DNA of 64,000 bases from assembly GCF_000725885.1 (NCBI RefSeq), contig NZ_JODR01000020.1, forward strand, positions 62,001 through 126,000, read 5' to 3'. The DNA comes from Streptomyces albus subsp. albus. GTDB lineage: Bacteria; Actinomycetota; Actinomycetes; Streptomycetales; Streptomycetaceae. Position 1 is the stretch's first letter. Every line of letters begins with the position of its first letter. A model generated the notes under the pieces. It saw only the letters and a program-made list of their open reading frames with translations, did not search any database and was not told the DNA's origin. Below are positions 24,095 to 59,356 of the stretch, piece after piece. The position numbers and the translations under genes are program-made.

Positions 24095-25552
24095 TCACCG
24101 CGCCTGACCTGCGGGCACACGAGGGCGCCGGGCCAGTTCTCCGTCCGTGAGGGCGACTTCGTCGTCGGCGATCCGGCGTACCACCCGCGGATCGTGCGTG
24201 ATGACGAGCACGCCCAGCGACTGCTCCTCGCACAGCTGACGCACCAGGCCGAGCACGGACTCCTGGGTCACCGAGTCCAGGGCCGAGGTCATCTCGTCGC
24301 ACAGCAGGACGCGTGGTCCGGCGGCCAACGCCCGGGCGAGGGCGACACGTTGACGCTGGCCGCCGGAGAGCCGGCCGGGCAGCCGTCGCGCGAGCCCGGC
24401 CGGCAGGCGGACCAGGGCGAGCAGCCGCTCGATCTCCTCGTCGATCTCCTGTGCGTCCCGCATCCCCCGCAGGACGCGCAGCGGACGCCGCAGGGCGTCA
24501 TGGACGGTCTGCGCGGGGTGCAGCGTCTCCGCCGGGCTCTGCGGCACCAGTTGGACCGCCGCGCGGTCCGCGGTGCGCCTCTTGTGCGCCCGCCCCGGCA
24601 ACGGCCGGCCGTCGAGGAGGACCGTTCCGGCGGCCGGCGGATGGAGCCCCGCCAGGCAGCGGGCCAGTGTCGTCTTGCCGCTGCCGGAGGCGCCGGTGAC
24701 GGCCAGGCACCGTCCCGGGTGCACCGTCAGACCGACGTTGTGGAGGACCTGCCGGGTGCCGCGCCGCGCGGTGAGACCTTCGACGTGCAGCAGCGGGGTC
24801 CCGCCGCTCTCGCGGGGAGGACGGCCGGCTGCCGCCGACGCCGCGGTGACGAGTGCCGCAGCGGCCCGGGAGGCCGGAGCGGTCAGCACGCGTTCCGCCG
24901 GGGCGTCCTCCACGATGCGTCCGTCGTCGAGCACCACGATGCGGTCGGCCAGTCCGTCGATCGAGGACAGGTCGTGGGTGATCCACAGCAGGCCCACCCC
25001 CGCCGCGCGGACGCGGGCGAGCTCCGCGCGGACCTCGTCCCTCGCCGCGGGATCGAGCGCGGAGGTGGGTTCGTCGAGCACCAGGAGCCGGGGATCCCGG
25101 GCGAGTGCGGCGGCCAGAGCGGCACGTTGCTGCTGGCCTCCGGACAGTTCGGCGGGCCTCCGGCCGGCGAGGGCGGCCGGCAGGCCGACCCGGTGGAGGA
25201 GCGCCGCCACGGGGTGCTCGCCACGGGTTCCCGAGGCGGTGCTCAGCGTGCGCGCCAGCCGGCGGTACGGGTTGAGGGTCGAGCCGGCGTCCTGCCCGAG
25301 ATAGGCGACGGTACGGCCCCGCAGCTGCGGGTGGGGCTCGGGCAGTGTGTCGTGCCCGGCGACGCGGACCCGGCCGCCGCCCAGCGTGATGCCCGGCCGC
25401 AGGTGTCCCAGCACGGCGAGGGCCAGTGTCGTCTTGCCGGAGCCGGAGGCGCCGACCACCGCCAGTGTCTCGCCGGCCCGTGCGGTCAGGGACACACCGC
25501 GCAGGACCGGCCCCTGGGCCGAACGCAGCGTCAGATTCTCGACGGAGAGCAT
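24095..25552 (-). CDS. Double ATPase of the peptide/nickel/opine ABC importer (DppD-DppF fusion)
   Basis: 485 residues holding two complete nucleotide-binding domains. Domain 1 (1-235): Walker A GASGSGKTT, signature LSGGQQQR, Walker B LLVLDEPTSALD. Domain 2 (about 250-480): Walker A GASGSGKTT, signature LSGGQRQR, Walker B VLLCDEMTSALD. Both belong to the Dpp/Opp/Nik subfamily normally encoded by two genes. ATG 25552 is chosen; GTG 25564 in frame overlaps the permease stop. Last gene of the importer operon; it should energise re-uptake of the metal-loaded metallophore. Confidence 0.92.
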   Translation of the reverse strand: MLSVENLTLRSAQGPVLRGVSLTARAGETLAVVGASGSGKTTLALAVLGHLRPGITLGGGRVRVAGHDTLPEPHPQLRGRTVAYLGQDAGSTLNPYRRLARTLSTASGTRGEHPVAALLHRVGLPAALAGRRPAELSGGQQQRAALAAALARDPRLLVLDEPTSALDPAARDEVRAELARVRAAGVGLLWITHDLSSIDGLADRIVVLDDGRIVEDAPAERVLTAPASRAAAALVTAASAAAGRPPRESGGTPLLHVEGLTARRGTRQVLHNVGLTVHPGRCLAVTGASGSGKTTLARCLAGLHPPAAGTVLLDGRPLPGRAHKRRTADRAAVQLVPQSPAETLHPAQTVHDALRRPLRVLRGMRDAQEIDEEIERLLALVRLPAGLARRLPGRLSGGQRQRVALARALAAGPRVLLCDEMTSALDSVTQESVLGLVRQLCEEQSLGVLVITHDPRVVRRIADDEVALTDGELARRPRVPAGQAR

Positions 25553-25560
25553 CGCGTGGC

Positions 25561-26424
25561 TCACTCCTCGGCCCGGGGGCGGGTCAGCGTGTCGGACAGC
25601 AGGTTGACGCCCACGGCGAGGACGGCGATCAGGACCAGCGGCGCCAGCAGTGCGTACGGCTGGAGAGCGGCACCGGGCAGCGCCTCGTGCAGCAGGGTGC
25701 CCCAGTCGGTGCCGGTCATCCCGACGCCGAGGAACCCGGCGGCGCCCACCAGGTACAGGGAGAAGACGAAGCGGAGGCCGGCGTCGGCGAGCACCGTGGT
25801 GGCGACCAGCGGCAGGACCTCGTACCGCAGTACCCAGGGCCACCGTTCGCCGCGCGCGACCGCCAGTTCCACGTGCGGTCTGTGCAATACGGGCAGTGCG
25901 GCGGCCCTGACGACCCGTGCGGACAGCGGGACCCCGGCGACACACGCGGCGACCACGACGCCGAGCCGGCTGGGCACGGAGGTCAGGACGAGCAGGAGGG
26001 CGAGCATGGGCGGCAGCGCGGCGAGGGCGTCGAGGGGGCGCATGACGACGCCTTCGGCCCTGGGCCGGCGGTGTGCGACGAAGGCCGCCAGCAGCCCGGC
26101 CGTGGTGCCGAGCACCACGGTGACCGCGGTGGCGAGCGTGGTGGTGAGCAGCACCGGCGGACCCCCGTGCAGCAGCCGGGACAGTACGTCGCGGCCCAGG
26201 TGGTCGGTGCCCAGCGGATGTGCGGTATCGGGGGCCGCGAACGGTGCCGCGGCCACCTCGGTGGGGGAGTGCGGGGCGAGCCACGGTCCGGCCGCCCCGG
26301 CCACCACGACGGCGCCGACGAGTACGGCCACGGCCGTGGTGCGCCTCCCGCCGCGGGCCCGGACGCGGGCGGCGGACGACCGGCCACCGCGTATGCCGCG
26401 CCGTGGCGGTGCGGGGGTGTTCAT
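25561..26424 (-). CDS. ABC importer permease (DppC/NikC type)
   Basis: 287 residues. An N-terminal cytosolic stretch rich in Arg, a first helix (TTAVAVLVGAVVVAGAAGPWLAPH) followed by the HPLGTDHLGRDVLSRLLHG motif of DppC/OppC/NikC permeases, then five further helices. The cytosolic coupling loop has the usual AARGERW-like EAA element (LAVARGERWPWVLRYEVLP). Its ATG overlaps the preceding permease stop by 4 nt. Part of the leftward importer operon. Confidence 0.92.
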   Translation of the reverse strand: MNTPAPPRRGIRGGRSSAARVRARGGRRTTAVAVLVGAVVVAGAAGPWLAPHSPTEVAAAPFAAPDTAHPLGTDHLGRDVLSRLLHGGPPVLLTTTLATAVTVVLGTTAGLLAAFVAHRRPRAEGVVMRPLDALAALPPMLALLLVLTSVPSRLGVVVAACVAGVPLSARVVRAAALPVLHRPHVELAVARGERWPWVLRYEVLPLVATTVLADAGLRFVFSLYLVGAAGFLGVGMTGTDWGTLLHEALPGAALQPYALLAPLVLIAVLAVGVNLLSDTLTRPRAEE

Positions 26425-27371
26425 ACGGACCTCGTTCTTCCGACTGCGGTGCCGACGACGTCTGCGGCGATGGTGGCCAGCAGGGTGAGGGCGCCCATGA
26501 GCATCGCGAGTGCCTGCACGACCGGCAGGTCGCCCGTGCTGACGGAGGTGACCAGCACCTTGCCGATCCCCGGGTAGTTGAAGACGATCTCCACCAGGAC
26601 GGTGCCGCCGAGGAGGCCGGCGGAGGTGACCAGCCAGATCTGGGCGGCGGCCGGCAGCACGGCCGGCAGTACCCCTTGGCACAGCACGGCCCGTTCGGGA
26701 ATGCCGTTGAGCCGCATGGCCTCCACGTGCGGGGCGCGGCACGCGGTGAGCGTCTGCGCCCTGATGACGCGGGTGGCGTAGGCGAGGCTCACCCACAGCA
26801 GACTGAGGACCGGCAGGACCAGCACCTCGGGATGGACGAGGGGCGAGTCACCCGCGGGCACCAGCGAGGTCGCCGGGAGCCAGCCCGACTGCGCGCCCAG
26901 TACGAGGGCGAGCACCCCGGCGACCAGGTACTCGGGCACGGCGGTGGTCAGGAGCAGCAGCGTCGAGCCGGTACCGTCGACGCGGCTGCCGGCCCGGCGG
27001 CCCAGTGCGACACCGAGGAGAAGGGAAAGGGGCACCAGAAGGAGGATGGTCAAGGCGGTCAGGACGGCGGTGTTGCCGAGCCGGCCGGCGAGCATCCCGG
27101 CGACGGGGGTGCCGTTCGCCGAGGTCCCCAGGTCGCCGTGGAGCAGACCGCCGGCCCACTCCAGATACCGCTGTGCCAAGGGCTCGTTCAGGCCGAGGCG
27201 TTCGCGCGCTGCCGCCAGCTGTTCCGGTGTGGCGTCGGGGCCCAGCCGGGCGGACGCGGGGTCACCGGGCAGGAGGTCGACGCCCGCGTACACCACCAGG
27301 GACAGGGCGGCCAGCAGGACGGCGGCGGTGCCGAGCCGGCCGGCGACGTACCGGGCCGTGTCCGCTCTCAC
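26421..27371 (-). CDS. ABC importer permease (DppB/NikB type)
   Basis: 316 residues, six membrane helices. It has the DppB-type first helix, a TPEQLAAARERLGLNEPLAQRYLEW external segment and the HGDLGTS motif, and the coupling loop RAPHVEAMRLNGIPERAVLCQGVLP. GTG 27371 overlaps the stop of the binding-protein gene. Forms the heterodimeric channel with the DppC-like subunit. The family imports peptides, nickel chelates, and opine metallophores (Cnt systems). Confidence 0.92.
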   Translation of the reverse strand: MRADTARYVAGRLGTAAVLLAALSLVVYAGVDLLPGDPASARLGPDATPEQLAAARERLGLNEPLAQRYLEWAGGLLHGDLGTSANGTPVAGMLAGRLGNTAVLTALTILLLVPLSLLLGVALGRRAGSRVDGTGSTLLLLTTAVPEYLVAGVLALVLGAQSGWLPATSLVPAGDSPLVHPEVLVLPVLSLLWVSLAYATRVIRAQTLTACRAPHVEAMRLNGIPERAVLCQGVLPAVLPAAAQIWLVTSAGLLGGTVLVEIVFNYPGIGKVLVTSVSTGDLPVVQALAMLMGALTLLATIAADVVGTAVGRTRSV

Positions 27372-28954: not shown

Positions 28955-29036
28955 GACACTCCGAGTGCGAGGGGGCGGGCGCGCCGATGTGCCGGGCCGC
29001 CCGCGGCTGAGAGGCGAAGACCCCCTCAGTCTTACA

Positions 29037-29051
29037 TGACAATCATTTTCA
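29037..29051. promoter_or_regulatory. FUR-family (Zur-like) box 1, importer side
   Basis: TGACAATCATTTTCA is a 7-1-7 palindrome with one mismatch (TGACAAT against TGAAAAT). It matches the form of the Streptomyces Zur box (TGAAAAT-N-ATTTTCA) and differs completely from the 19-bp DmdR1 iron box. On the minus strand it falls between a possible -35 TTGATG (29058-29053) and -10 TAAGAC (29034-29029). Confidence 0.65.
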
Positions 29052-29200: not shown

Positions 29201-29229
29201 TTGACAATCGTTTTCGATAGGGCTTGTAT
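29201..29229 (+). promoter_or_regulatory. Promoter of the biosynthetic operon
   Basis: Perfect -35 TTGACA (29201-29206), 17-bp spacer, -10 TTGTAT (29224-29229). About 100 nt before the thioesterase start. Such a near-consensus housekeeping promoter is unusual in Streptomyces and suits a strongly repressed gene set. Confidence 0.65.
29202..29216. promoter_or_regulatory. FUR-family (Zur-like) box 2, overlapping the biosynthetic -35
   Basis: TGACAATCGTTTTCG shares TGACAATC and TTTTC with box 1 but is a weaker palindrome. It overlaps the -35 hexamer and half of the spacer, the position expected for a repressor that blocks RNA polymerase. Confidence 0.55.
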
Positions 29230-29328
29230 GGGCAGCGCCCGACGGCACCCCGCCGGCCCGCACCCGCCGTGCGCGCCACCGGGGCCGATCCCTCCGCCGG
29301 GTGCCTGTGCCGAAGGGAGACAACGCAC

Positions 29329-30102
29329 GTGACGGACGCCTGGCTGCGCTGCCGAACGCCCCGGCACAAGCCCTCCGCCCGCCTGGTCTGCCTGCCGCAC
29401 GCCGGCGGCACGGCCGGCCCGTACGCGGCCTGGTCGGCCGGCCTCCCCGAGGACGTGGAGCTGTCCGCGGTGCAGTACCCCGGGCGCGAGGACCGGCTGT
29501 CCGAACCGCCCGCCGACGACCTGCGGACCCTCGTCGCCGGCGTCTCGGCGGCACTCCTGCCGCTCACCGACCGCCCGTTGGTGCTCTTCGGTCACAGTTT
29601 CGGCGCCGCGGTCGCCTACGAGACCGCGTGTGTACTGACCGCCTGGGGAGCCGCCCCCGGCCACCTCGTGGTCTCCGGCCGCCGCGCCCCCTCCGCGCCG
29701 GCCCGCGGCGACATGCACACCAGGCCCGACGACGAACTGGTCGCGGAACTCGTCCGGCTCGGCGGAACCCGCGGCGACCTGCTCGCCGACCCCGCCGTCC
29801 GCGCCGTCTACCTGCCCGCCGTCCGCGCCGACTTCCGGCTCGCGGAGACCTACCACCGCGCCGCACCCCCGCCCCTGCACTGCCCGGTGACCGCCGTGCT
29901 CGGAGACGCGGACACCGAGGTCGACGAGGCGCAGGCTGGGAGCTGGTCGCACCACACCACCGGCCCCTTCGCCCTGCACACCTTCCCGGGCGGCCACTTC
30001 TACTTCACCCCCCGGCGCGAGCCGGTGCTGCGCCTCCTGGCGGACCTCACCCGCACCGCCGCCGGCGCCCGCCCCCAACCGGAAAGCGAGAACCTTTCGT
30101 GA
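29329..30102 (+). CDS. Type II (editing) thioesterase
   Basis: 257-residue alpha/beta hydrolase of the GrsT/YbtT class. N-terminal RLVCLPHAGGTAGPYAAW, nucleophile motif GHSFG, acid in LGDADTEVD, and the catalytic His in FPGGHFYF. Such enzymes clear mis-primed carrier proteins on NRPS lines. GTG 29329 has GAAGGGAG upstream. First gene of the rightward operon; its stop overlaps the next start (GTGA). Confidence 0.92.
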   Translation: MTDAWLRCRTPRHKPSARLVCLPHAGGTAGPYAAWSAGLPEDVELSAVQYPGREDRLSEPPADDLRTLVAGVSAALLPLTDRPLVLFGHSFGAAVAYETACVLTAWGAAPGHLVVSGRRAPSAPARGDMHTRPDDELVAELVRLGGTRGDLLADPAVRAVYLPAVRADFRLAETYHRAAPPPLHCPVTAVLGDADTEVDEAQAGSWSHHTTGPFALHTFPGGHFYFTPRREPVLRLLADLTRTAAGARPQPESENLS

Positions 30103-31484
30103 CCCCTCGGGACCCCTTCCCCGAACGCGGACTCACCTTCAGCGGCGACCCCGTCACCGTCGCCGCCGCCCTGTGCGCGGCCACCGATGAGCCGCACCTG
30201 CTGTACGAACAAGGCGGCGACGTCGTATGGAGCGAGGGCGAGGCCGTCGTGGTCGAGGTGGACGGGACTGCCGTCCGCCGGTACGGCCCGGACACCGCGA
30301 CCGCGCAACTGCCCGCCGGCGCCCACCCACTGGCCGCCGCCGGGGAACTGCTCCGCGCACAGACCGGCGGCCCGGGAACGGCGCACGGCTGGATCACCTA
30401 CGAGCTGGCCCACGCCTACCACGGCGGCGACGTGCCCGCCGGCCGTCTCCTCGCCCGCTTCGTCGTCCCGCGGCGCGAGATCAGGCTGACGCCCTCCGCG
30501 GCCGTACTGCGGGCCGCAGGCCCGGACGCCCTCGACACACTGGAGCGGCGGCTGCGCACCGCCGAGCGCGCGGCCACCACCCCGGTCGCCTCCCGGATCA
30601 CCGTCGACCTGGAGGAGCACGCCGCCCGGTACCGCGCCGCCGTCACCGAGGTCGTACGAGCCATCCGGGCGGGGGAGTTGGACAAAGCCATCGTCTCCCG
30701 CAGCGTGACCGTGCCCCGCGAGATCGACCTGCCGGCCACCTACGTGGCGGGCAGGCGCGGCCATCGCCCGGCCCGCTCCTTCCTCCTGCGGCACGGCGGA
30801 TGGGAGGCCGCCGGGTTCAGCCCCGAGATAGTCGCCCGGATCGACGCCGACGGCCTCGTCACCGCCCAGCCGCTGGCCGGCACCCGCGCCCTGACGGGCG
30901 ACCCCGCGGCGGACGCCGCCCGCCGCGCCCAGCTCCACCGCGACGCCAAGGAGGTGTACGAACACGCCGTCTCGGTACGCCTGGTGCAGGAGGAACTGCA
31001 CTCGGTCTGCCTCCCGGAGACGGTACGCGCCGAGGCGTTCATGGGCGTGGAGGAACGGGGCAGCGTGCAGCACCTCGCCTCCCGGCTGCGCGGCAGACTC
31101 GCACCCGGCCGCGACCGGTGGGACGCCCTCGCCGCGCTCTTCCCCGCGGTGACCGCCTCCGGAATACCCAAACCGCCCGCGCTCGCCGCCGTCCGCCGCG
31201 CGGAAGAGCGCGAACGCGGGCTCTACAGCGGCGCGGTCGTCCGGCTCGACCGGGACGGCACCCTGGACGCCGCCCTGGTACTGCGCACCGTCCTGCGCAA
31301 GGACGGCCGGACCTGGCTGCGTGCCGGGGCCGGCATCGTGGCGGACTCCGACCCCGAACGGGAACTGGAGGAGACCCGGGAGAAACTCCGGGCGGTCAGC
31401 GGCCACCTGGTCCCGGCGGACGCGACAACGGTGTCCGACGACACGGGAGGGGCAGTCGTGCCGACCGCCGTGACGGCCCCGTGA
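30099..31484 (+). CDS. Salicylate synthase (MbtI/Irp9/YbtS family)
   Basis: 461 residues of chorismate-utilising (MST) enzyme that turns chorismate into salicylate plus pyruvate without a separate lyase. Characteristic segments are GELDKAIVSRSV (base lysine), RSFLLRHGGWEAAGFSPEIV, the AGTRAL loop, VEERGSVQHLASRLRG, FPAVTASGIPKP, YSGAVVRLD, and GAGIVADSDPERELEET near the C-terminus with Mg-binding glutamates. This order is near-identical to MbtI. It supplies the aryl cap of the metallophore. GTG 30099 overlaps the thioesterase stop by 4 nt. Confidence 0.95.
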   Translation: MTPRDPFPERGLTFSGDPVTVAAALCAATDEPHLLYEQGGDVVWSEGEAVVVEVDGTAVRRYGPDTATAQLPAGAHPLAAAGELLRAQTGGPGTAHGWITYELAHAYHGGDVPAGRLLARFVVPRREIRLTPSAAVLRAAGPDALDTLERRLRTAERAATTPVASRITVDLEEHAARYRAAVTEVVRAIRAGELDKAIVSRSVTVPREIDLPATYVAGRRGHRPARSFLLRHGGWEAAGFSPEIVARIDADGLVTAQPLAGTRALTGDPAADAARRAQLHRDAKEVYEHAVSVRLVQEELHSVCLPETVRAEAFMGVEERGSVQHLASRLRGRLAPGRDRWDALAALFPAVTASGIPKPPALAAVRRAEERERGLYSGAVVRLDRDGTLDAALVLRTVLRKDGRTWLRAGAGIVADSDPERELEETREKLRAVSGHLVPADATTVSDDTGGAVVPTAVTAP

Positions 31485-32632
31485 ACCGGCCTCGACGTCC
31501 GCTGCGCGTCGTGGTCGCCGGAACCGCTTTCGGGCGCATCTACCTCGACGCCGTCCGCCGCGACCCGGACGCCTTCACCCTCACCGGCATCCTCGCCAAG
31601 GGCGGGGACTACTCGCGCCGTTCGGCCGAGCGGGCCGGAGTGCCGCTCCACACCGACGCCGCGCACCTGCCCGACGACACCGACATCCTCTGTGTCGTCG
31701 TCCGCTCCGGCGCCACCGGCGGCCCCGGCTCCGACATCGCCCGCACCGCGCTGCGCCGCGGCATCCACGTACTCCAGGAACACCCCGTCCACGCCGGTGA
31801 ACTCGCCGGCAACCTGCGGGCCGCCCGCGACGGCGACGCCGCCTACGCCGTCGGCACGCTCTACCCCGACCTGGCGCCCGTGCGGGCCTTCCTGGCCGCC
31901 GCCGAGGTGCTGCGCGCCCGGGGCCCCGTCCGCTTCGTCGACGCCGCCTGCAACAGCCAGGTCGCCTACCCGCTGCTGGACGTCCTCGGCCGGGCAGCCG
32001 GCGCACTGCGGCCCTGGGCCTTCCGCGCCCAGCCCGGACCCGACGCCCGGCTCACCGCCCTCACCGGACACCAGCAGCCCTTCCGTACCGCGCACGCCGT
32101 CATCGGCGGCACCCCCGTCACCCTGCGGGTGCAGAACGAGGTGCACCCCGACGACCCGGACAACCACTCCCATCTGCTGCACCGCCTCGCACTGGGCACC
32201 GACGCCGGTGTCCTCACCCTCGCCGACACCCACGGGCCGGTGCTGTGGAATCCGCGTCTGCACGCCCCGCGCGACACCACGGGACGCCTCGTGCTCGCCG
32301 GTCCCGGCACCGAGCGGCTGGCCGCACCCTCCACCGTGGAACTCCACCCGGCCGCCGGCAGCTACCACCACGTCTTCGCCCAGCTGTGGCCGCAGGCCGT
32401 CCTCGCCGCTCTGCACCGCCTGCGGGACGCCGTGACCGACCGGGCCCTGCGGCCCGCCGCCGGGCAGTGGGCCCTGTCGGTGTCCCGCTGCTGGGCCGAC
32501 CTGACCGCGCAGCTCGGCATGCCCGAACTGATCCGGCCCGGCGAGCCGCCCGTCGTGGACTGGACCGACCTGCGGGACGCCGCAGCCGCCGCCTCGACAG
32601 CCCTCGCCCGCGCAGGAGAACAGGCCCCATGA
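31481..32632 (+). CDS. Thiazolinyl imide reductase (PchG/Irp3/YbtU family)
   Basis: 383 residues. N-terminal Rossmann fold starting LRVVVAGTAFGRIYLDAV, then the QEHPVHAGELAGNL segment where PchG/Irp3 place their conserved active-site residues, and a C-terminal substrate domain. The family uses NADPH to reduce one carrier-bound thiazoline to thiazolidine in pyochelin and yersiniabactin. GTG 31481 overlaps the salicylate synthase stop. Implies that one of the three heterocycles in the product is a thiazolidine. Confidence 0.93.
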   Translation: MNRPRRPLRVVVAGTAFGRIYLDAVRRDPDAFTLTGILAKGGDYSRRSAERAGVPLHTDAAHLPDDTDILCVVVRSGATGGPGSDIARTALRRGIHVLQEHPVHAGELAGNLRAARDGDAAYAVGTLYPDLAPVRAFLAAAEVLRARGPVRFVDAACNSQVAYPLLDVLGRAAGALRPWAFRAQPGPDARLTALTGHQQPFRTAHAVIGGTPVTLRVQNEVHPDDPDNHSHLLHRLALGTDAGVLTLADTHGPVLWNPRLHAPRDTTGRLVLAGPGTERLAAPSTVELHPAAGSYHHVFAQLWPQAVLAALHRLRDAVTDRALRPAAGQWALSVSRCWADLTAQLGMPELIRPGEPPVVDWTDLRDAAAAASTALARAGEQAP

Positions 32633-33411
32633 CCGCCACCTCCCCGCCCTCCCCGCCCTCCCTGCCTTCCCCGCCACGCCGCACCAGCCACGTCCTGGTG
32701 CGCGTGCACGACCTGCACCGCGCGGTCCAGGACTTCCGCGCCGCCGGGTTCGACGTCGCCTACGCGACCGCTCCCGAGCGCAAGGCGCTGCACGCGCACG
32801 TCTGGTTCCCCCAGGGGCCGGTGATCGAGCTGCTGACCACACCGCCCGGGGCCCGCTGGATGCGGTTGCCCGTGGACCTGCGCTTCGGCCGGGGCGCGGG
32901 CGACCGCATGGTCCGCTGGGCCCGCCAGGACGAGGGCTTCTGCGACCTGGCCCTGCTCGTCGAGCACGCCGAACTGGCAGGCGTCACCCGCCGCCTCGCC
33001 GACGACGGGGTGCCGTGCGGACGCGCCGTGCACTGGACGCGCCGGCGCCCGGACGGCGGCGAGACACGGTTCGCCTTCTCCTACCCGAGGGCAGGACGCC
33101 TCCCGTTCCTCGTCACCCCCTACGACCCGCCCCAGCACCCGTCCGGTGTCCGCCACCCCAACGGTGCCCGGGCCCTGACCCGGATCGTCCTCGGAGTCCA
33201 CCCCGACGACCTGCCCGCCGTGCGGCACCTGGCCGGTGACGCACCGGACCTCCTGCTGGAGGAGGCACCGGTGACCGCCGTACGCGCCGTCCACCTCGCC
33301 GGGCTGACCCGGCCGCCCGACCCGGCCCTGCTGCACGGCGCCGTGCTGCGCCCGGCCGACGACCTGCCCGCACCGCCCACCACACACGGCAAGGGGACCT
33401 CCACGTCATGA
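32629..33411 (+). CDS. VOC (glyoxalase-3-like) protein in the metallophore operon
   Basis: 260 residues. After a Pro/Ser-rich leader, residues about 20-150 are a glyoxalase/VOC-like module: HVLVRVHDLHRAVQDFRAAGFDVAYAT, HAHVWFPQGPVIELLTTP. The rest resembles the second half of Glyoxalase_3 proteins (PHPSGV-like stretch PQHPSGVRHPNGARALTRIVLGV). Not a standard member of pyochelin-type clusters. The fold can bind metal or ligands, so a tailoring enzyme, a product-binding or self-protection protein are all possible. ATGA overlaps on both sides show it is an integral operon member. Confidence 0.75.
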   Translation: MTATSPPSPPSLPSPPRRTSHVLVRVHDLHRAVQDFRAAGFDVAYATAPERKALHAHVWFPQGPVIELLTTPPGARWMRLPVDLRFGRGAGDRMVRWARQDEGFCDLALLVEHAELAGVTRRLADDGVPCGRAVHWTRRRPDGGETRFAFSYPRAGRLPFLVTPYDPPQHPSGVRHPNGARALTRIVLGVHPDDLPAVRHLAGDAPDLLLEEAPVTAVRAVHLAGLTRPPDPALLHGAVLRPADDLPAPPTTHGKGTSTS

Positions 33412-48355: not shown

Positions 48356-48382
48356 GTGCGCCCGGACGGCAACCGGGCGCAC
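48356..48382 (+). terminator. Intercistronic hairpin between asnB and P450-1
   Basis: GTGCGCCCGG pairs with CCGGGCGCAC (7-nt loop), 22 nt after the asnB stop. Probably an attenuator or processing site, since the operon continues. Confidence 0.4.
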
Positions 48383-48409
48383 CCCCGCACCCGCACACCG
48401 GAGAACCTT

Positions 48410-51348: not shown

Positions 51349-52532
51349 CCACGCCCGCCCGCTACCCGTTCAACACCGACGAAGGGCTGGACCTGGCCGA
51401 CGCCTACCGCGCCGCCCAGCACACCCCGGGCCCCGTCCGCGTCCAACTGCCCTACGGCGAACCGGCCTGGCTCGTCACCCGTCACGACGAGGCCCGGGCC
51501 GTCCTCGCCGACACCCGCTTCTCCCGCGCCATGGACGCCCGGCGCGACGCGCCCCGCACCACCCCCGTCAGCCCCATCGGCCTGGTCGCCACCGACCCGC
51601 CCGACCACACCCGGCTGCGCCGCCCCGCCGCCCGCGCCTTCACAGCCCGCCGCGCGGAGGCACTGCGCCCCCGCGTCCGGCGGATCGCCGAGGACGCCGT
51701 CCGGCGGATGACCGCCTCGGCGGCCCCCGCCGACCTGGTGGCACACGTCGCGCTGCCCGTGCCGATCACCGTCATCTGCGAACTGCTGGGCGTCCCCGCC
51801 CAGGACCGCGACCGCTTCCGCGGCTGGAGCGACACCGTACTGTCCACCAGCGGGGCCGGCCCGCAGGACTTCCTGGCCGCCACCGCCGCGCTCAAGACGT
51901 ACATGGGCGACCTGCTCGACCGGCGGCGGGCCGAACCCGCCGACGACCTGATGACGGCGCTGCTGCGCGCCCGCGACGAGGACGCCCCCGACAGCAGGGC
52001 CTCCAGGGACGAACTCGTCGAACTGTGCATCGCCCTCCTCCTCGGCGGCTACGAGACCACCGCCTCCCAGCTCGCCAACTTCACCTGGGTGCTGCTCACC
52101 CAGCGCCCCGACGCCCTCCCCGGCATCGCGTCACATCCCGGGCGGGCCCGCGCCTGGGTGGAGGAACTGCTCCGGTACGTTCCGCTGGCAGCCTCCGCCT
52201 CGCTGCCGCGCTACGCCGTCGAGGACGTGGATGTCGGCGGCGTCACGGTACGGGCCGGCGAACCCGTCCTGGTGGCGATCGGAGCCGCCGACCGCGACGC
52301 CCTCCGCTTCCCCGCCCCCGACACCCTCGACCCGGACCGCGACACCGCGGGGCACCTCGCCTTCGGGCACGGCATCCACCACTGCGCCGGTGCCGCGCTG
52401 GCCCGTGTCGAACTCCAGGAGGGCCTCGGTGCCCTCGCCCGTCTGCTGCCCGGGCTGCGCCTGGCCGGAGAGCCGACATGGAAGCGGGCCGCCTTCCTCA
52501 GAGGCCCGGCCACCCTGCCGGTGCGCTGGTGA
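51345..52532 (+). CDS. Cytochrome P450 (second of two)
   Basis: 395 residues. I-helix LLLGGYETTASQ, ExxR region VEELLRYV, heme loop FGHGIHHCAG with Cys347. It shares the general CYP107-like form of the other P450 but differs over most of its length, so the two are not a recent duplication. GTG 51345 is coupled to the ligase stop. Two P450s imply two oxidations on the scaffold or cap. Confidence 0.93.
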   Translation: MTTPARYPFNTDEGLDLADAYRAAQHTPGPVRVQLPYGEPAWLVTRHDEARAVLADTRFSRAMDARRDAPRTTPVSPIGLVATDPPDHTRLRRPAARAFTARRAEALRPRVRRIAEDAVRRMTASAAPADLVAHVALPVPITVICELLGVPAQDRDRFRGWSDTVLSTSGAGPQDFLAATAALKTYMGDLLDRRRAEPADDLMTALLRARDEDAPDSRASRDELVELCIALLLGGYETTASQLANFTWVLLTQRPDALPGIASHPGRARAWVEELLRYVPLAASASLPRYAVEDVDVGGVTVRAGEPVLVAIGAADRDALRFPAPDTLDPDRDTAGHLAFGHGIHHCAGAALARVELQEGLGALARLLPGLRLAGEPTWKRAAFLRGPATLPVRW

Positions 52533-52660: not shown

Positions 52661-55600
52661 GTGCTGACCGACCCGACCGATCCGGCCGCCGCCGAGACGA
52701 CGGACCTGGAGACCCTGCGTGCCCGGCTCGCCGCGGTACTCGACCTGCCGCCCGGCGACCTCGCCGACGACGACAACCTCATCGCCCTCGGCCTGGACTC
52801 CATCACGCTGATGAAACTGGCCGCCCGCTGGCGCCGCGCCGCCCCAGGCGTCACCTTCGGGGCCCTCGCCGCCGATCCGACGCCCGCCGCCTGGCACGCC
52901 CTGCTCTCCAGCGCTCCGGCACCTCACGCTTCCGGGGCACCGGACCCGGCCACAGCGCCGGCTGCCGCAGGTCACAAGGACACCGGCCACAAGGACACCG
53001 GCCATGAGGCCGGCGGCGAGGAGGACACCGGCCCCTTCCCGCTGGCGCTGATGCAGCACGCCTACTGGGCCGGACGGTCGCCGGGACAGCGGCTGGGCGG
53101 TGTCGCCGCGCACTTCTACCACGAGTTCGACGGCACCGGCGTCGAGCCCGGACGCCTCCAGGCGGCCGTGCGGTCCGTCCTCGCCCGCCACGACATGCTC
53201 CGGGTCCGTGTCCTCGACAACGGCACCCAGGAGATCCTGGACACCAGCCCCTGGCCCGGCCTCCACGTCACCGACCTGCGCCGGCACACTGCCGAGCGGG
53301 CCGCGGCGGACCTCGACCGCATCCGCGGCACCCTGTCGCACCGCGCCATGGACATCGGCGCGGGCGAGGTCTTCGACGTACGGCTCACCCTGCTGCCCGA
53401 CGGCCGCACCCGCACACACGTCAACCTCGACATGATCGCCGCCGACGCGCTCAGCCTCCGCGTCCTGCTGGCCGACCTCGCCGACGCCTACACGGCCGGA
53501 GGCGAGGTGCCCCGCGCCGCGCCCGGCTACTCCTTCCGCCGCTACCAGTCCGACCGGGCGGCCCACCGCGCCGGAGCCGGCCGGGCCGCCTGCGAAGCGG
53601 ACCGCGACTGGTGGGCCGACCGCCTCGACGCCCTGCCGGGGCCGCCGGAGCTGCCCGCGGCCGGACACGACGCGGATGCCACACGCGTCGTCCGCAGACA
53701 CCGGGTGCTCAGCCCCGAGCGGGCCGCCGCCTTCGAGGCCCGGGCCCGCGCCCACGGACTGACCCCCGCGCTCGCGCTCACCGCCGTCTTCGCCGAGGTC
53801 CTCACCGCCTGGAGCGCCACCCCCTCCTTCCTGCTCAACCTCCCGCTGTTCGACCGCGAACCGCTGCACCCGGACGTCGAGGACCTGGTGGGGGACTTCA
53901 CCTCCTCCGTCCTGCCGGCCTGGGACGGAACCGCGCCGGGCGGGTTCGCCGAGCGGGCGGGCAGGCTCCAGGAGCGGTTCCACACCGACGCGGCGCACGC
54001 CCGCCACTCCGGGGTGGAGGTGCTGCGCGACCTGACCCGCCGCCGCGGCGCCCCCACGCTCGCCCCCGTGGTGCACACCAGCGCCCTGGGCCTCGGCCCG
54101 CTCTTCCCGGCCCCGGTCACCCGCGTCTTCGGGGAACCGGTGTGGATCATCTCGCAGGGCCCGCAGGTCTGGCTCGACGCCCAGATCACCGAACTCGACG
54201 GCGGTCTGCTGGTCAACTGGGACGCCCGCGAGGACGCTTTCGCCCCCGGTGTGCTCGACGCCATGTTCGCCGCCTACAGCTCCCTGCTCGACCGGCTCAC
54301 CGACGACGCGACCGCGTGGACGTCCCCCGTCGGCGACCTGCTCCCCGACGACCAGCGGCGCACCCGCCGGGAGGCGAACGCGACAGGCCGGCCGCCCGGT
54401 GGCGGACTGCGGCTGCACGACGAGTTCTTCCGCCACGCCGCAGCCGCGCCCGGCACACCGGCACTGCTGTGGGGGAGCGGCACCGGCACCGGGAAGTACA
54501 CCTACGGCGAACTCGCCGACCGTGCACTGAAAGTCGCCGGACATCTGCGCGCCCGGCAAGTCGGCCCCGGCGATCTGGTCGCCGTGAGTCTGCCCAAGGG
54601 GCCCGAGCAGGCGGTCGCCGTGCTCGGCGTCCTCGCCGCCGGCGCGGCCTACCTCCCCGTCGCCGCGGACCAGCCGCCGGCGCGGCGCGAGCGCATCCTC
54701 AAGTCCGCCGGGGCCCGTCTGCTTCTCGACAGCCTGGACGCCGCCCGCACCGCCGAGCCCCTGCCCGCGCCGCTGCCCGGTACGCCCGAGGACCTCGCCT
54801 ACGTCCTGTACACCTCCGGCTCGACGGGCGAACCCAAGGGCGTGGAGGTGCCGCACGCGGCGGCCATGTGCACCGTGGCCGATCTGCGGGACCGGCTGGC
54901 ACTCGGCCCCGGCGACCGCACACTCGCCCTGTCCGCGCTGGAGTTCGATCTCTCCGTCTTCGACCTGTTCGCACCACTGAGCACCCGGGGAGCCGTCGTC
55001 TGCGTCGGGGAGCCGGAGCGCCGGGACGCCGAGGCGTGGCTGCGCCTGGCGCACACCCACCGGGCGACCGTCCTCAACTGCGTACCCGCCCTGCTCGACA
55101 TGCTGCTCACCGTGGCCGAGGCCAGCACAGTGGACGCACAACCGGCCCCGCGGCTGCCCCTGCGCGCCGTGCTGCTCGGCGGCGACCGGGTCACCACCGG
55201 CCTGGCCGAGCGGCTGGCCCGCCAGGCACCCGACTGCCGGTTCGCCGGACTCGGCGGAACCACCGAGACCGCCATCCACTCAACCTGGCAGGAGGTGCGG
55301 CTCCCGCTGCCCGGCGACTGGGACATCGTGCCCTACGGCCGGCCGCTCGCCGGGGTGCGCTGCCGGGTGGTGGACGCGCTCGGCCGCGACTGCCCCGACT
55401 GGGTGCCCGGCGAACTGTGGATCGGCGGCGGGGGAGTGGCCCGCGGCTACCGGGGCGACCCCGAGCGCACCGCCGACCGGTTCGTCCGGCACGGCGGGGT
55501 GCGCTGGTACCGCACCGGAGACCGCGCCCGCTACCGCCCCGACGGCACACTGGACTTCCTCGGCCGCACCGACGACCAGGTCAAGCTGCGCGGCCACCGC

Positions 55601-58600
55601 ATCGAACCCGGCGAGGTGGAGGCCGCGCTGGCGACCCATCCCGACGTGTCCGCCGTCGTCGCGGTGGTGCTGCCCCACAGCCGGCTGGCGGCGGCCGTCG
55701 TACCCGCCCCGGGACGGCTTCCCTCACCGGCCCACCTCAAGGAACACCTCGGCACGCTCCTGCCGCCGTTCATGGTTCCCGACAGCACGGTGGTGCTCCC
55801 CGAACTCCCGCTGACCCGCAACGGCAAGACCGACCGGGCCGCCGTCGCGGAACGCGTGCGGCAACTGGCCGCCGCCGGCACCGGGCCGGCCGCACCGCAG
55901 CGCCACGAACCGCCCCGCACCGACACCGAACGCCTCGTCGCCGCCGCCTGGAAGGACGTCCTGCGCATCCCCGGGCCCGGACCCGGACGCACCGACGACT
56001 TCTTCGCCCTGGGCGGCGACTCCCTGGTGGCCACCCGTCTCCTGACCCGGCTGCGGGCCGACGGGGCGCGGGGCACCGCCCTCAGCGCCCTGTTCGCCCA
56101 CCCCGTCCTCGCCGACTTCGCCGAAACCCTCCACCTCGGCCCGGCCCGCCCGGCGCCCCGCCCGCCCGCGCCCGACCCCGAACACCGCCACGACCCCTTC
56201 CCGCCCACCGACGTGCAGCTCGCCTACTGGCTCGGGCGCGGCGAGGAGTTCACCCTCGGCGGCGTCGGCTGTCACTTCTACCGCGAGTACGACATACCCC
56301 GGCTCGACGTGGCACGGCTGGAGGAGGCCGTCAACCGGCTGGTGGCACGGCACGAGATGCTGCGGGCCGTCTTCGACGCCGACGGCAACCAGCGCGTCCT
56401 CGCCGAGGTCCCCCGCTTCACCCTCCAGGTCACCGACGCCGGACCGGACCCCGAAAAAGCCCGCGCCGCGCTGCGCGACACCTGGTCGCACCACGTCTTC
56501 GACCCAGGCCGCTGGCCGCTGTTCAGCATCGCCGCCGTCCGCGACGGCGAACGGGTACGGCTGGCCGTCGGCATGGACAACCTCGTCCTGGACGCGCTGA
56601 GCATCCTCACCTTCTACTCCGAACTGTCCGCGCTGTACGCCGACCCGGACGCCGCCCTGCCGCCCGTGGACGTCTCCTTCCGCGACCACGTGCTCGCCGC
56701 CCGGCCCGACCCGGAGGAACAGCAAGCCGCCGAAGAGTACTGGGACCGGCGGCTCGACGACCTGCCGCCCGCACCCCGGCTGCCCCTCGCCCGCGACCCG
56801 GCCGAAGTCGCCCGCCCCCGGTTCGCCCGGCGCACCGCCACTCTCGACGCGGCGGCACGCAGGGCCCTGGAGGAGCGCGCCCGCGCCCACGGCGTCACCC
56901 CGTCCGCCGTCCTGCTGACGGCGTACTGCGAGGTGCTGTCCGCATGGAGCAGCGAGCGGGACCTCACCGTCAACCTGACCCTGTTCGACCGGCGGGAAGC
57001 ACACCCGCACATCGCCCGCGTCCTGGGCGACTTCACCTCGCTGGTGCTGGTCGGCCACGAGCACCGGCCCGACGAGGCATGGCTGACCGGTGCCCGCCGC
57101 ACCCAGCGGGAGCTGTGGCAGGCCCTCGACCACCGCTCCCTGTCCGCCGTCCAGGTGCTGCGCCGGCTCGCCCGCCGCACCGGGCAGGCCGATGTGACCA
57201 TGCCGGTCGTCTTCACCAGCGCCCTCGGCCTGGACGCCGGCGACGATACGGCCGGGCTCTTCACCGACCAGGTGTACGGCATCACCCAGACCCCGCAGGT
57301 GTGGCTGGACCACCAGGCCGTCGAACGGCGCACCTTCGAGGGCACCGTGATCGACCTGCACTGGGACGCCGTCGAGGAGCTGTTCCCCGACGGCGTGCTC
57401 GACGCCATGTTCGAGGCGTACACCGCACACCTGCGGCGTCTGCTGGAGGCCGACTGGAACGCCCCGCGGCCGGTCGGTCTGCCGCCCGCGCAGCGCGCCG
57501 CGCGGGACGAGGCCAACGACACGGCCGCACCCCAGCGGGAGACCTGCCTGCACGCGCCGTTCTTCCGCAACGCCATCGCCAACCCCGACGCCCCGGCGCT
57601 CCTCGCGGACGGCACCCACCCGCCCGTGACCTACGGAGAACTGTCACTGCGGGCCCGCCGGATCGCCGCGCTGCTGACCGCGCACGGTGTCCGTGAGGGC
57701 GAGCCGGTCGCCGTCTGCCTGCCCAAGGGCCCCGACCAGATCGCCGCCGTCCTCGGTGTGCTCGCCGCCTCGGCCGCGTACGTGCCCGTCGGCATCGACC
57801 AGCCACGGGTACGCCGCGACCGCATCGTCACCCGGGCGGGCGCGCGGCTGGTACTGACCGCGGAGGCCACCGGCGAGGAGTGGCCCGCCGTCCCTCTGCC
57901 GCTGACCGACGCCGACCGTCACGAGCCGGTCGCCGCCCCGGCCGCCGCCGCCCCGGACCAGTTGGCGTACATCGTCTTCACCTCCGGTTCCACCGGTGAC
58001 CCCAAGGGGGTCGAGATCACCCACGGGGCCGCCGCCAACACGGTCGAGGACGTCAACGAGCGCTACGGGGTGGGCCCCGACGACCGGGTCCTGGCCGTCT
58101 CGGCTCTCGACTTCGACCTGTCGGTCTACGACGTCTTCGGCCTGCTGTCGGCCGGCGGCGCGCTGGTCACCGTCGCCGAGGAGGAACGCCGCGACGCCCA
58201 GCGGTGGGCCGACCTGTGCGTCCGGCACCAGGTGACGGTGTGGAACACGGTCCCCGCACTGCTCGACATGCTGCTGACGGTCGCCGAGCACCAGCCCGGC
58301 CGCGTCCCCGGCGCCCTGCGGCTGGCACTGCTGTCCGGCGACTGGATCGGCCTCGACCTGCCGGGCCGGCTGTCCGCGCTGGTGCCCGACTGCCGCCTCG
58401 TCGGCCTGGGCGGCGCCACGGAGGCGTCCATCTGGTCCAACGCGCACGACATCGCGGGCCCCCTGGCCGGCTGGCCCTCCATTCCGTACGGCAGGCCGCT
58501 GCGCAACCAGCGCTACCGCGTGGTGGACCCGGCGAACGGTGAGGACCGGCCCGACTGGGTGCCGGGCGAGCTGTGGATCGGCGGCACCGGACTGGCCCGC

Positions 58601-59356
58601 GGCTACCGCGGCGCCCCCGCGGCGACGGCCGCCCGCTTCGTCACCGCCGACGGACACCGCTGGTACCGCACCGGCGACCTCGGCCGGTACCGGCCCGGTG
58701 GAGTGCTGGAGTTCCTCGGCCGCACCGACGACCAGGTGAAGATCCGGGGCCACCGCATCGAACTGGGCGAGGTGGAGGCCGCGCTGTCCGCACACCCGGA
58801 CGTGAGCCGTGCGACGGCCGCCGTCTCGGCCTCCGGCGCCGCACGCGAACTCGTCGCCGCCGTCGTCCCCGCCGACGGCTGCGACAGCACGGCGCTGCCC
58901 ACCGCACTGCGGCACTGGCTGGAGGAGCGCCTTCCCCCCGCGATGGTGCCGCACCGGATCGCCGCGCTGCCCGTGCTCCCGCTGACCGCGAACGGCAAGG
59001 TGGACCGGCGCGGTGTGCCCGCTGCCGTGGCCGCAGCCGTTGGCCGGGGAGCCGGCGAGAAGGAGACAGAAGGGCGGCTCGACGCGGTCCAGCGGTCGGT
59101 GGCATCCCTGTGGGAGAGCGTCCTCGGCTGCCCGGTGCGCACACCGGAGGACAACTTCTTCACCCTCGGCGGCGACAGCGTCAAGGCGGTCCGGCTGGTC
59201 GAGCGGGCGGCGGCGGAGCTGGGGGTGCGGCTGCCCCTCGGCCGCTTCTTCGCCCGTCCGACTCTCGGCGCCTTCGCGGACCTCGCCCGCAGCCGGACGT
59301 CACCCGCGGGCGGCGAGGCGGAGCGGATGGAGGAAATGGAGGAAGGGGCCCTGTGA
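52661..59356 (+). CDS. NRPS-2: ArCP-Cy-A-T-Cy-A-T, salicyl-capped initiating synthetase
   Basis: 2231 residues. Aryl carrier protein (15-85; GLDSI, Ser47); Cy1 about 120-550 (DMIAAD, Asp257/Asp262); A1 about 575-1065, pocket DLFNLGLIH; carrier Ser1121; Cy2 about 1175-1600 (DNLVLD); A2 about 1630-2130, pocket DLYNLSLIW (cysteine); carrier Ser2173; acidic tail EAERMEEMEEGAL. Neither A domain carries a methyltransferase insert. There is no TE, so the chain must pass to NRPS-1. A1 shares Asn, Gly and His with the threonine code, so the first ring may be an oxazoline. GTG 52661 follows AAGGAAG. Confidence 0.95.
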   Translation: MLTDPTDPAAAETTDLETLRARLAAVLDLPPGDLADDDNLIALGLDSITLMKLAARWRRAAPGVTFGALAADPTPAAWHALLSSAPAPHASGAPDPATAPAAAGHKDTGHKDTGHEAGGEEDTGPFPLALMQHAYWAGRSPGQRLGGVAAHFYHEFDGTGVEPGRLQAAVRSVLARHDMLRVRVLDNGTQEILDTSPWPGLHVTDLRRHTAERAAADLDRIRGTLSHRAMDIGAGEVFDVRLTLLPDGRTRTHVNLDMIAADALSLRVLLADLADAYTAGGEVPRAAPGYSFRRYQSDRAAHRAGAGRAACEADRDWWADRLDALPGPPELPAAGHDADATRVVRRHRVLSPERAAAFEARARAHGLTPALALTAVFAEVLTAWSATPSFLLNLPLFDREPLHPDVEDLVGDFTSSVLPAWDGTAPGGFAERAGRLQERFHTDAAHARHSGVEVLRDLTRRRGAPTLAPVVHTSALGLGPLFPAPVTRVFGEPVWIISQGPQVWLDAQITELDGGLLVNWDAREDAFAPGVLDAMFAAYSSLLDRLTDDATAWTSPVGDLLPDDQRRTRREANATGRPPGGGLRLHDEFFRHAAAAPGTPALLWGSGTGTGKYTYGELADRALKVAGHLRARQVGPGDLVAVSLPKGPEQAVAVLGVLAAGAAYLPVAADQPPARRERILKSAGARLLLDSLDAARTAEPLPAPLPGTPEDLAYVLYTSGSTGEPKGVEVPHAAAMCTVADLRDRLALGPGDRTLALSALEFDLSVFDLFAPLSTRGAVVCVGEPERRDAEAWLRLAHTHRATVLNCVPALLDMLLTVAEASTVDAQPAPRLPLRAVLLGGDRVTTGLAERLARQAPDCRFAGLGGTTETAIHSTWQEVRLPLPGDWDIVPYGRPLAGVRCRVVDALGRDCPDWVPGELWIGGGGVARGYRGDPERTADRFVRHGGVRWYRTGDRARYRPDGTLDFLGRTDDQVKLRGHRIEPGEVEAALATHPDVSAVVAVVLPHSRLAAAVVPAPGRLPSPAHLKEHLGTLLPPFMVPDSTVVLPELPLTRNGKTDRAAVAERVRQLAAAGTGPAAPQRHEPPRTDTERLVAAAWKDVLRIPGPGPGRTDDFFALGGDSLVATRLLTRLRADGARGTALSALFAHPVLADFAETLHLGPARPAPRPPAPDPEHRHDPFPPTDVQLAYWLGRGEEFTLGGVGCHFYREYDIPRLDVARLEEAVNRLVARHEMLRAVFDADGNQRVLAEVPRFTLQVTDAGPDPEKARAALRDTWSHHVFDPGRWPLFSIAAVRDGERVRLAVGMDNLVLDALSILTFYSELSALYADPDAALPPVDVSFRDHVLAARPDPEEQQAAEEYWDRRLDDLPPAPRLPLARDPAEVARPRFARRTATLDAAARRALEERARAHGVTPSAVLLTAYCEVLSAWSSERDLTVNLTLFDRREAHPHIARVLGDFTSLVLVGHEHRPDEAWLTGARRTQRELWQALDHRSLSAVQVLRRLARRTGQADVTMPVVFTSALGLDAGDDTAGLFTDQVYGITQTPQVWLDHQAVERRTFEGTVIDLHWDAVEELFPDGVLDAMFEAYTAHLRRLLEADWNAPRPVGLPPAQRAARDEANDTAAPQRETCLHAPFFRNAIANPDAPALLADGTHPPVTYGELSLRARRIAALLTAHGVREGEPVAVCLPKGPDQIAAVLGVLAASAAYVPVGIDQPRVRRDRIVTRAGARLVLTAEATGEEWPAVPLPLTDADRHEPVAAPAAAAPDQLAYIVFTSGSTGDPKGVEITHGAAANTVEDVNERYGVGPDDRVLAVSALDFDLSVYDVFGLLSAGGALVTVAEEERRDAQRWADLCVRHQVTVWNTVPALLDMLLTVAEHQPGRVPGALRLALLSGDWIGLDLPGRLSALVPDCRLVGLGGATEASIWSNAHDIAGPLAGWPSIPYGRPLRNQRYRVVDPANGEDRPDWVPGELWIGGTGLARGYRGAPAATAARFVTADGHRWYRTGDLGRYRPGGVLEFLGRTDDQVKIRGHRIELGEVEAALSAHPDVSRATAAVSASGAARELVAAVVPADGCDSTALPTALRHWLEERLPPAMVPHRIAALPVLPLTANGKVDRRGVPAAVAAAVGRGAGEKETEGRLDAVQRSVASLWESVLGCPVRTPEDNFFTLGGDSVKAVRLVERAAAELGVRLPLGRFFARPTLGAFADLARSRTSPAGGEAERMEEMEEGAL

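What the first reader, a model, noticed from the sequence alone, without database searches (positions are those of the whole stretch)
24095..59356. A probable zincophore cluster: salicyl-capped heterocyclic NRPS plus Cnt/Dpp-like importer under FUR-family control
The cluster joins a pyochelin/yersiniabactin-type assembly line (salicylate synthase, PchG-like reductase, Cy domains, YbtP/Q-like ABC pair) with a peptide/nickel/opine importer and a divergent promoter bearing FUR-type boxes, and I see no DmdR1 iron box. The plan recalls coelibactin, the Zur-linked metallophore of S. coelicolor, but the tandem MT protein, AsnB, VOC protein and saccharopine-type reductase are extras I do not know from described pathways. 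The product would be a salicyl tris-heterocycle, possibly amidated, with unknown metal preference.
Basis: partly seen in the sequence, partly recalled or inferred. Interest (0 to 1): 0.85.

Follow-up and report, generated by a model that had tools for sequence, protein, structure and literature searches.

The report
Zinc-scavenger gene cluster in Streptomyces
A soil bacterium carries a gene set that probably builds, exports and re-imports a small zinc-grabbing molecule when zinc runs short; it belongs to a known chemical family but to a branch that I did not find described.

Summary
Window 24095-59356 of a Streptomyces genome is one divergent cluster: a family-5 (Opp/Nik-type) importer on one side; on the other salicylate synthase, salicylate-AMP ligase, two NRPSs with three cyclization domains, two C=N reductases, two P450s, methyltransferases, AsnB and two ABC exporters. 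The promoter region has two Zur boxes. The ChIP-derived S. coelicolor Zur motif matches exactly at two places in the 7.63-Mb genome, one of them here; a pattern made from the cluster's boxes finds three further places at one mismatch, two of them before znuA. Boxes recur before the orthologous clusters of S. cacaoi and Streptomyces sp. ISL-12. The iron-box pattern hits ten other places in the genome, none on this contig. Zinc control is well supported; zinc binding and uptake are inferred. AsnB, a second P450, the importer type and Zur control distinguish this cluster. A reductase tree puts it outside the coelibactin clade. Verdict: a new variant of a known kind.

The parts
24095..25564 (-). 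importer: two fused ATPase domains (NikD/NikE-like order)
   Evidence: Two ABC_tran stretches in Pfam, two Walker A and two LSGGQ motifs; best NCBIfam NikE 314 bits, below its cut-off of 333
25561..26331 (-). importer permease C
   Evidence: Opp1C/NikC-like, below the curated cut-offs; gene model
26421..27371 (-). importer permease B
   Evidence: PF00528 79 bits and PF19300 40 bits
27368..28954 (-). importer substrate-binding lipoprotein, family 5
   Evidence: PF00496 230 bits; twin-arginine-like leader and LTGC lipobox read by eye; start set at 28954 by likeness to the ISL-12 protein; gene caller gave 28936
29037..29051 (.). Zur box 1 (importer side), TGACAATCATTTTCA
   Evidence: exact match to the S. 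coelicolor ChIP motif TGANNATSATNNTCA (motif from PMC5472717; search)
29202..29216 (.). Zur box 2 (biosynthetic side), TGACAATCGTTTTCG
   Evidence: same position before the thioesterase gene as the boxes of S. cacaoi and ISL-12
29329..30102 (+). stand-alone (type II) thioesterase, GHSFG
   Evidence: translation, motif; no NCBIfam match at E<=1e-20; named from sequence and from the orthologous starts
30099..31484 (+). salicylate synthase
   Evidence: TIGR03494 416 bits, cut-off 325
31511..32632 (+). thiazolinyl imine reductase (PchG/Irp3/SrbI type)
   Evidence: TIGR01761 295 bits, cut-off 189
32629..33411 (+). VOC / glyoxalase-like protein (SrbJ-like by domain)
   Evidence: PF13468 62 bits
33408..38927 (+). 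NRPS1: TubC docking - Cy - A(DLYNLSLIW, Cys-type) - MT - PCP - TE with active-site Cys (GYCLG)
38924..40765 (+). ABC exporter half 1
   Evidence: ABC_membrane + ABC_tran
40762..42516 (+). ABC exporter half 2
   Evidence: ABC_membrane + ABC_tran
42513..43661 (+). saccharopine-dehydrogenase-type C=N reductase (SrbE-like)
43658..46435 (+). tandem methyltransferase: two copies related to the MT domain inside NRPS1
   Evidence: two Methyltransf_12 stretches; halves 33% identical to each other, 38-42% to the NRPS1 MT; C-terminal half matches CurJ C-methyltransferase, 117 bits
46492..48333 (+). AsnB-type glutamine-dependent amidotransferase
   Evidence: TIGR01536 454 bits, cut-off 267; N-terminal MCG and SGGLDSS present
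48356..49636 (+). cytochrome P450 a
   Evidence: PF00067; best solved relative TamI 378 bits; CYP105N1 is not among the 60 best of 232 matches shown
49726..51348 (+). salicylate-AMP ligase
   Evidence: best solved relative 5wm2 'Salicylate-AMP ligase' 644 bits, next 2,3-dihydroxybenzoate-AMP ligase 597 bits; below the DHB ligase model cut-off (604 of 724)
51345..52532 (+). cytochrome P450 b
   Evidence: PF00067 (longer frame); NCBIfam matches all below cut-off
52661..59356 (+). NRPS2: ArCP - Cy - A(DLFNLGLIH) - PCP - Cy - A(DLYNLSLIW, Cys-type) - PCP
   Evidence: two A, two Condensation, three PP-binding stretches; codes; Cy motifs

Best explanation
The cluster makes, exports and re-imports a salicyl-capped tris-heterocyclic metallophore of the sorangibactin/coelibactin type and is switched by zinc through Zur. 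With zinc plentiful, Zur-Zn sits on the two boxes and covers the core promoters of both divergent units; when zinc falls, both are released together. Salicylate is made from chorismate, adenylated and loaded on the aryl carrier domain of NRPS2. NRPS2 adds a first ring, probably an oxazoline (A1 code DLFNLGLIH), and a second ring from Cys; NRPS1 adds a third from Cys. Two C=N reductases, one PchG/Irp3-like and one saccharopine-type, reduce two thiazolines to thiazolidines; the embedded and the tandem methyltransferases methylate them on the line; a P450 oxidises the first ring. The Cys-thioesterase releases the chain and AsnB makes an amide at or near the released end. The exporter pair secretes it and the family-5 importer brings the zinc complex back. 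Shown by computation: gene content, Zur boxes, their conservation. Inferred: each chemical step, zinc preference, import of the complex.
For: Exact match to the ChIP-derived Zur motif at 2 places in 7.63 Mb, one this promoter, reversed control 0. A pattern built from the two cluster boxes has 5 places genome-wide at up to one mismatch: 2 here, 2 before znuA, 1 unassigned; control 0. The znuABC-linked FUR protein best matches S. coelicolor Zur, 255 bits. S. cacaoi and Streptomyces sp. ISL-12 carry the same gene order with a Zur box 50-80 bases before the thioesterase gene; ISL-12 has the importer (79-89% identical) on another contig, with its own exact box just before the binding protein. In ISL-12 the cluster abuts a FUR-family gene, a cobW GTPase gene and a znuA-type gene. 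Iron-box pattern: 10 other places in the genome, none on contig C20. NRPS domains and tailoring set match sorangibactin. Reductase-fold match to Schiff-base reductases.
Against: No metal-binding or expression data. Sorangibactin was induced by iron limitation and formed an Fe(III) adduct. The importer is not universal: S. cacaoi has no close relative of the binding protein (best 28%). A consensus promoter scan found no sigma-70-type promoter in the divergent region, so the hexamers under the boxes are my reading. Box 2 departs from the ChIP motif at two positions. The Zur reading depends on a 15-bp motif; no footprint exists for this species.
Confidence: 0.72

Rival explanations
1. It is an iron siderophore like sorangibactin; Zur control is a cross-regulation or reports a general metal-stress response.
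For: Sorangibactin, the closest characterised relative in gene content, is induced by iron limitation and binds Fe(III); salicyl-thiazoline compounds such as pyochelin and yersiniabactin are siderophores (established knowledge).
Against: No iron box in the window at up to 5 mismatches while the pattern hits 10 places elsewhere in this genome; the boxes match znuA's; the ISL-12 copy lies in a zinc-gene neighbourhood.
Confidence: 0.12
2. A broad-range metallophore (Zn, Ni, Co, Cu) whose importer takes several metal complexes.
For: The importer belongs to the family-5 group that contains nickel, opine-metal and peptide transporters; best models NikE/NikA/Opp, best solved relatives include nickel-binding proteins.
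Against: Only a zinc-type operator was found; a nickel-regulator (Nur) pattern, recalled, gives only chance matches in the window.
Confidence: 0.12
3. A zinc-withholding weapon or antibiotic made under zinc starvation rather than an uptake system.
For: The importer is not linked to the cluster in ISL-12 and has no close relative in S. cacaoi; an exporter pair is present.
Against: Importer and biosynthetic genes share one Zur-box promoter region here and each carries a Zur box in ISL-12.
Confidence: 0.04

Closest known systems
Sorangibactin (srb) pathway, Sorangiineae strain MSr11367 (PMC10127202; abstract, one section and passages read)
   Same: Salicylate synthase, salicylate-AMP ligase, NRPSs of 7 and 5 domains, saccharopine-type reductase, two methyltransferase units, P450, thiazolinyl imine reductase, VOC protein, terminal TE with active-site Cys
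   Different: Here the two trans MT units are one protein; there is an AsnB (the terms asnB and asparagine do not occur in that paper), a second P450 and Zur boxes; sorangibactin is induced by iron limitation. Its sequence (OQ368584) was not in any collection I could search, so no residue-level comparison was made.
Coelibactin cluster SCO7676-7692 of S. coelicolor (PMC3430247 and PMC5472717, passages read)
   Same: Zur-controlled salicyl-type NRPS cluster with metal-transport genes, exporters, P450, saccharopine-type reductase; no isolated product
   Different: This lineage lies outside the coelibactin reductase clade; NRPS1 only about 42% identical to coelibactin-type loci; P450s are not CYP105N1-like by best match; has VOC protein and AsnB; divergent layout
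Pyochelin / yersiniabactin pathways
   Same: Salicyl cap, Cy domains, thiazolinyl imine reductase, ABC pair
   Different: Three Cy modules without a polyketide module, two C=N reductases, VOC, AsnB, Zur boxes
Staphylopine Cnt and nickel Nik importers
   Same: Family-5 binding protein, two permeases, two ATPase domains
   Different: ATPases fused in one protein; all model scores below curated cut-offs

Membership tests
Zur regulon | Zur box (7-1-7 palindrome) at the promoter | tested here: met
   Exact ChIP-motif match, one of 2 places in the genome; box shared with znuA pattern
Zur regulon | Zinc-dependent repression by Zur | not testable with these tools
   Needs transcripts or binding assays
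Sorangibactin-type cluster | 7-domain and 5-domain NRPS with three Cy-A modules and TE with Cys | tested here: met
   GYC[LM]GG is not specific: the motif scan also finds it in 22 of the 38 other reductase loci
Sorangibactin-type cluster | SalS, AMP ligase, saccharopine-type reductase, MT units, P450, imine reductase, VOC | tested here: met
   (by domain; not by comparison with the srb sequences)
Sorangibactin-type cluster | Homocysteine gamma-thiolactone product | not testable with these tools
   No product data; AsnB suggests a different end
Coelibactin cluster | Imine reductase within the coelibactin clade | tested here: not met
   Our clade (3 rows, 100/100) lies outside; the coelibactin clade (6 rows, 100/99) joins 11 loci without boxes first, 100/99
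Coelibactin cluster | CYP105N1-type P450 | tested here: inconclusive
   P450 a best matches TamI; 3tyw is not among the 60 shown of 232 matches; P450 b was not searched against PDB
Coelibactin cluster | Zur control | tested here: met
   Zur boxes; in 38 other loci a box with up to 2 mismatches occurs in 5, all among the 6 coelibactin-clade loci
Staphylopine-type Cnt importer | NCBIfam CntA/CntC/CntF equivalogs | tested here: not met
   66, 105 and 210 bits against cut-offs 800, 440 and 385
Salicyl-capped metallophore assembly line | Salicylate synthase and salicylate-AMP ligase | tested here: met
   (over cut-off)

The most novel reading that the evidence does not exclude
This is a second lineage, separate from coelibactin, in which an iron-type salicyl-thiazoline assembly line was turned into a zinc scavenger: Zur boxes were captured at a divergent promoter, a family-5 importer was added, exporter and salicylate-synthase genes were traded with coelibactin clusters, and AsnB amidates the terminal carboxylate, removing a hard iron(III) ligand and so biasing the chelator to zinc.
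Probability: 0.25. Interest if true: 0.7.

Novelty: new variant of a known kind. Interest (0 to 1): 0.55.

Why it matters
Coelibactin, the first proposed bacterial zincophore, was reported as never isolated in the two papers seen (PMC3430247, PMC10127202, passages). A separate, syntenic, Zur-linked lineage in at least three Streptomyces genomes gives fresh material for finding what such a molecule is. A 2026 survey of metallophore clusters states that regulatory elements will likely be needed to tell zincophores from siderophores (PMC12971057, passages); here that test separates loci cleanly at up to 2 mismatches. AsnB is conserved in all 3 clusters compared and gives one gene whose deletion tests a chemical reason for zinc preference.

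Tried and rejected
Rejected: CntABCDF-type importer (scores far below cut-offs). Rejected: simple coelibactin orthologue. Rejected as support: the TE active-site Cys, because the same motif occurs in 22 of 38 other reductase loci. Weakened on recount: a first scan printed Zur boxes for one strand only; with both strands two further loci, L059 and L073, have matches at 3 mismatches, so the clean split holds at up to 2 mismatches (5 of 38 loci) and not at 3 (7 of 38). Independent origin of Zur control in the two clades is favoured only weakly: the label needs 3 changes on the reductase tree, and by my count a single origin would need about 4. The iron-box scan of the other loci found nothing at up to 4 mismatches in 38 loci, so it does not say how those are controlled. 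A nickel-regulator pattern gave chance matches. A consensus promoter scan gave none. No match to the tandem MT in the plasmid collection; AsnB relatives there are at most 61% identical and were not followed. A first named-genome scan with the single MT sequence confirmed none of 137 stretches; the alignment scan gave 5 loci, of which 2 (S. cacaoi, ISL-12) are syntenic. The PDB sequence search with the saccharopine-type reductase found nothing, hence the fold model. The list does not contain a thiazoline reductase; that excludes nothing.
Full report
What is there. The window is G000:C20:62001-126000 of a 7.63-Mb genome in 104 contigs. The tandem methyltransferase is 98% identical to a Streptomyces albus protein, and zur-znuABC lies beside a glycyl-tRNA-synthetase-like gene (that name is from reading the sequence), so this is a Streptomyces close to S. 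albus (inference). Gene models were made by a codon-position script and domains by Pfam and NCBIfam. One unit runs left from about 28954: binding protein, two permeases, fused ATPases. The other runs right from 29329: thioesterase, salicylate synthase, thiazolinyl imine reductase, VOC protein, NRPS1, two exporter halves, saccharopine-type reductase, tandem MT, AsnB, P450 a, salicylate-AMP ligase, P450 b, NRPS2. Neighbouring genes often overlap by four bases, as in an operon. To the right follows a gene with an RNase H domain.

Assembly line. NRPS2 is ArCP-Cy-A-PCP-Cy-A-PCP and NRPS1 TubC-Cy-A-MT-PCP-TE. All three Cy domains carry DxxxxD. My motif script reads the A-domain codes as DLFNLGLIH, DLYNLSLIW and DLYNLSLIW. 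The last two are the cysteine type of this family (recalled). The first differs at two positions that in recalled threonine codes are also Gly and His, so Ser or Thr, giving an oxazoline, is my guess; sorangibactin's first A domain was likewise predicted Cys and turned out to take Ser. The first code is the same in S. cacaoi and ISL-12.

Zinc control. S. coelicolor Zur binds tGaNNatSatNNtCa (PMC5472717, passages). This pattern matches exactly at 2 places in the whole genome, the importer-side box at 29037 and one unexamined site on contig C42; reversed control 0. A pattern covering both cluster boxes, with one mismatch allowed, gives 6 rows at 5 places: two here, two 22 bases apart directly before znuA, one on C16 without an assigned gene; control 0. 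Of the four FUR-family genes found, the one beside znuABC best matches the solved S. coelicolor Zur (7vo0/3mwm, 255 bits). The iron-box pattern (recalled) hits 10 places elsewhere at up to 3 mismatches (13 rows, control 0) and none on C20; I did not check which genes those 10 sites head. On the biosynthetic side the box overlaps TTGACA, 17 bases before TTGTAT (TTGGAT in S. cacaoi); on the importer side the box lies within the 18 bases between TTGATG and TAAGAC (TTGTAA and TATGAA in ISL-12). These hexamers are my reading (sequences); the consensus scan reported none.

Conservation. Two named genomes hold syntenic clusters. Streptomyces sp. ISL-12: NRPS1 86%, AsnB 92%, imine reductase 90%. S. 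cacaoi NBRC 12748: NRPS1 71-73%, AsnB 85%, imine reductase 79%. Each has a Zur box before the thioesterase gene: exact TGACAATCATTTTCA in S. cacaoi, TGACAATCGTTTTCA in ISL-12. At up to one mismatch S. cacaoi has three such places in all: this one and a pair identical in sequence and spacing to our znuA pair, whose genes I did not fetch. ISL-12 has six at that level. At two mismatches many sites are chance (reversed control 10 against 34 rows in ISL-12). In ISL-12 the importer (79-89% identical) is on another contig with its own exact box; S. cacaoi has no close relative of the binding protein. The ISL-12 cluster ends 62 bases from a FUR-family gene, beside a cobW gene, and shares its contig with a znuA-type gene. 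Protein search gives 11 proteins at 61-98% identity over at least 97% of the tandem MT, so the lineage is wider, but their gene neighbourhoods were not seen.

Relation to coelibactin. Thiazolinyl imine reductases occur in 39 of 392 Streptomyces genomes drawn. I fetched flanks of 38 places. Six form a clade whose gene order fits the published coelibactin map; the P450 of one of them, L071, best matches CYP105N1, 433 bits. A Zur box with at most 2 mismatches, either strand, is in 5 of 38 loci, all in that clade; 0 of 190 dinucleotide shuffles. At 3 mismatches two other loci join. The sixth clade member, L080, has none in the fetched stretch. In the reductase tree (41 rows) our lineage is a separate clade, 100/100; Zur-labelled rows need 3 changes, 0 of 500 shuffles as low. 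In the exporter tree, however, L071 and L075 of the coelibactin clade nest with ours and ISL-12 to the exclusion of S. cacaoi, 97/94; their exporter proteins are 87-91% identical to ours while NRPS1 is about 42%. The salicylate synthase tree agrees but with support of only 83-84. So an exporter cassette, perhaps with salicylate synthase, has passed between the two Zur-linked lineages. The other four clade members show no exporter match in the fetched stretch.

Relation to sorangibactin. The abstract, one section in full and passages of PMC10127202 were read. SrbC and SrbD have seven and five domains, as NRPS2 and NRPS1 do apart from the docking domain. SrbB, E, F/G, H, I, J, K match our salicylate synthase, saccharopine-type reductase, MT units, P450, imine reductase, VOC protein and ligase by domain. 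The paper reports each of these needed for the product by deletion (E/F/G together), states that the VOC protein is absent from coelibactin but conserved in many homologues, and that homologous clusters occur in Streptomyces. Its product is salicyl-oxazole-bis(N-methyl-thiazolidine)-homocysteine thiolactone and is iron-regulated, which is the main evidence against a simple transfer to zinc.

Literature. Searches showed no paper on an AsnB-bearing, Zur-controlled salicyl-thiazoline cluster; beyond the papers named I saw listings and abstract openings only, and subscription papers, including the Kallifidas 2010 Zur paper, are not held. A side result in print fits: in Streptomyces sp. Tu6176 salicylate from the coelibactin pathway feeds UK-1, and its production improves in zinc-deficient medium (PMC5445379, passages).

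Verdict. Observation confirmed; zinc regulation well supported; zinc chelation likely but unproven; a new variant of the coelibactin/sorangibactin kind.

Noticed in passing
L071 14977-18896, L075 1055-4659: Coelibactin-clade loci whose exporter genes are 87-91% identical to ours and nest within our lineage, although NRPS1 is only about 42% identical: exchange of an exporter cassette between two Zur-linked lineages.
   Followed up: partly
L098 9366-13623 (ISL-12, contig C187): A second family-5 importer with a Zur box 73 bases before its binding-protein gene, about 30% identical to ours; possibly the importer of another zincophore.
   Followed up: partly
L096 2751-9292 (ISL-12): znuA-type, cobW-type and FUR-family genes with Zur-like sites beside the cluster; a near-identical FUR-like protein lies beside the exporters in L075 177-608 (by eye, not scanned).
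   Followed up: partly
L048 7063-8901, L053 3849-5687: AsnB 62-63% identical to ours beside thiazolinyl imine reductase, exporters and thioesterase in loci without Zur boxes: another AsnB-bearing metallophore type.
   Followed up: no
G000:C42:16448-16462 and G000:C16:199448-199462: Other near-consensus Zur sites in the genome without an assigned target; C42 not fetched.
   Followed up: no
P0027-P0029, P0031: Sorangium proteins that fuse an imine-reductase-like (Gfo/Idh/MocA) domain to a methyltransferase related to the tandem MT (names as given by the source for three of them).
   Followed up: no
window 18604-23692: MFS transporter, acyl-CoA-ligase-like, enoyl-CoA-hydratase-like and LysR-type genes left of the cluster; look like a separate acid-catabolism operon.
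   Followed up: no
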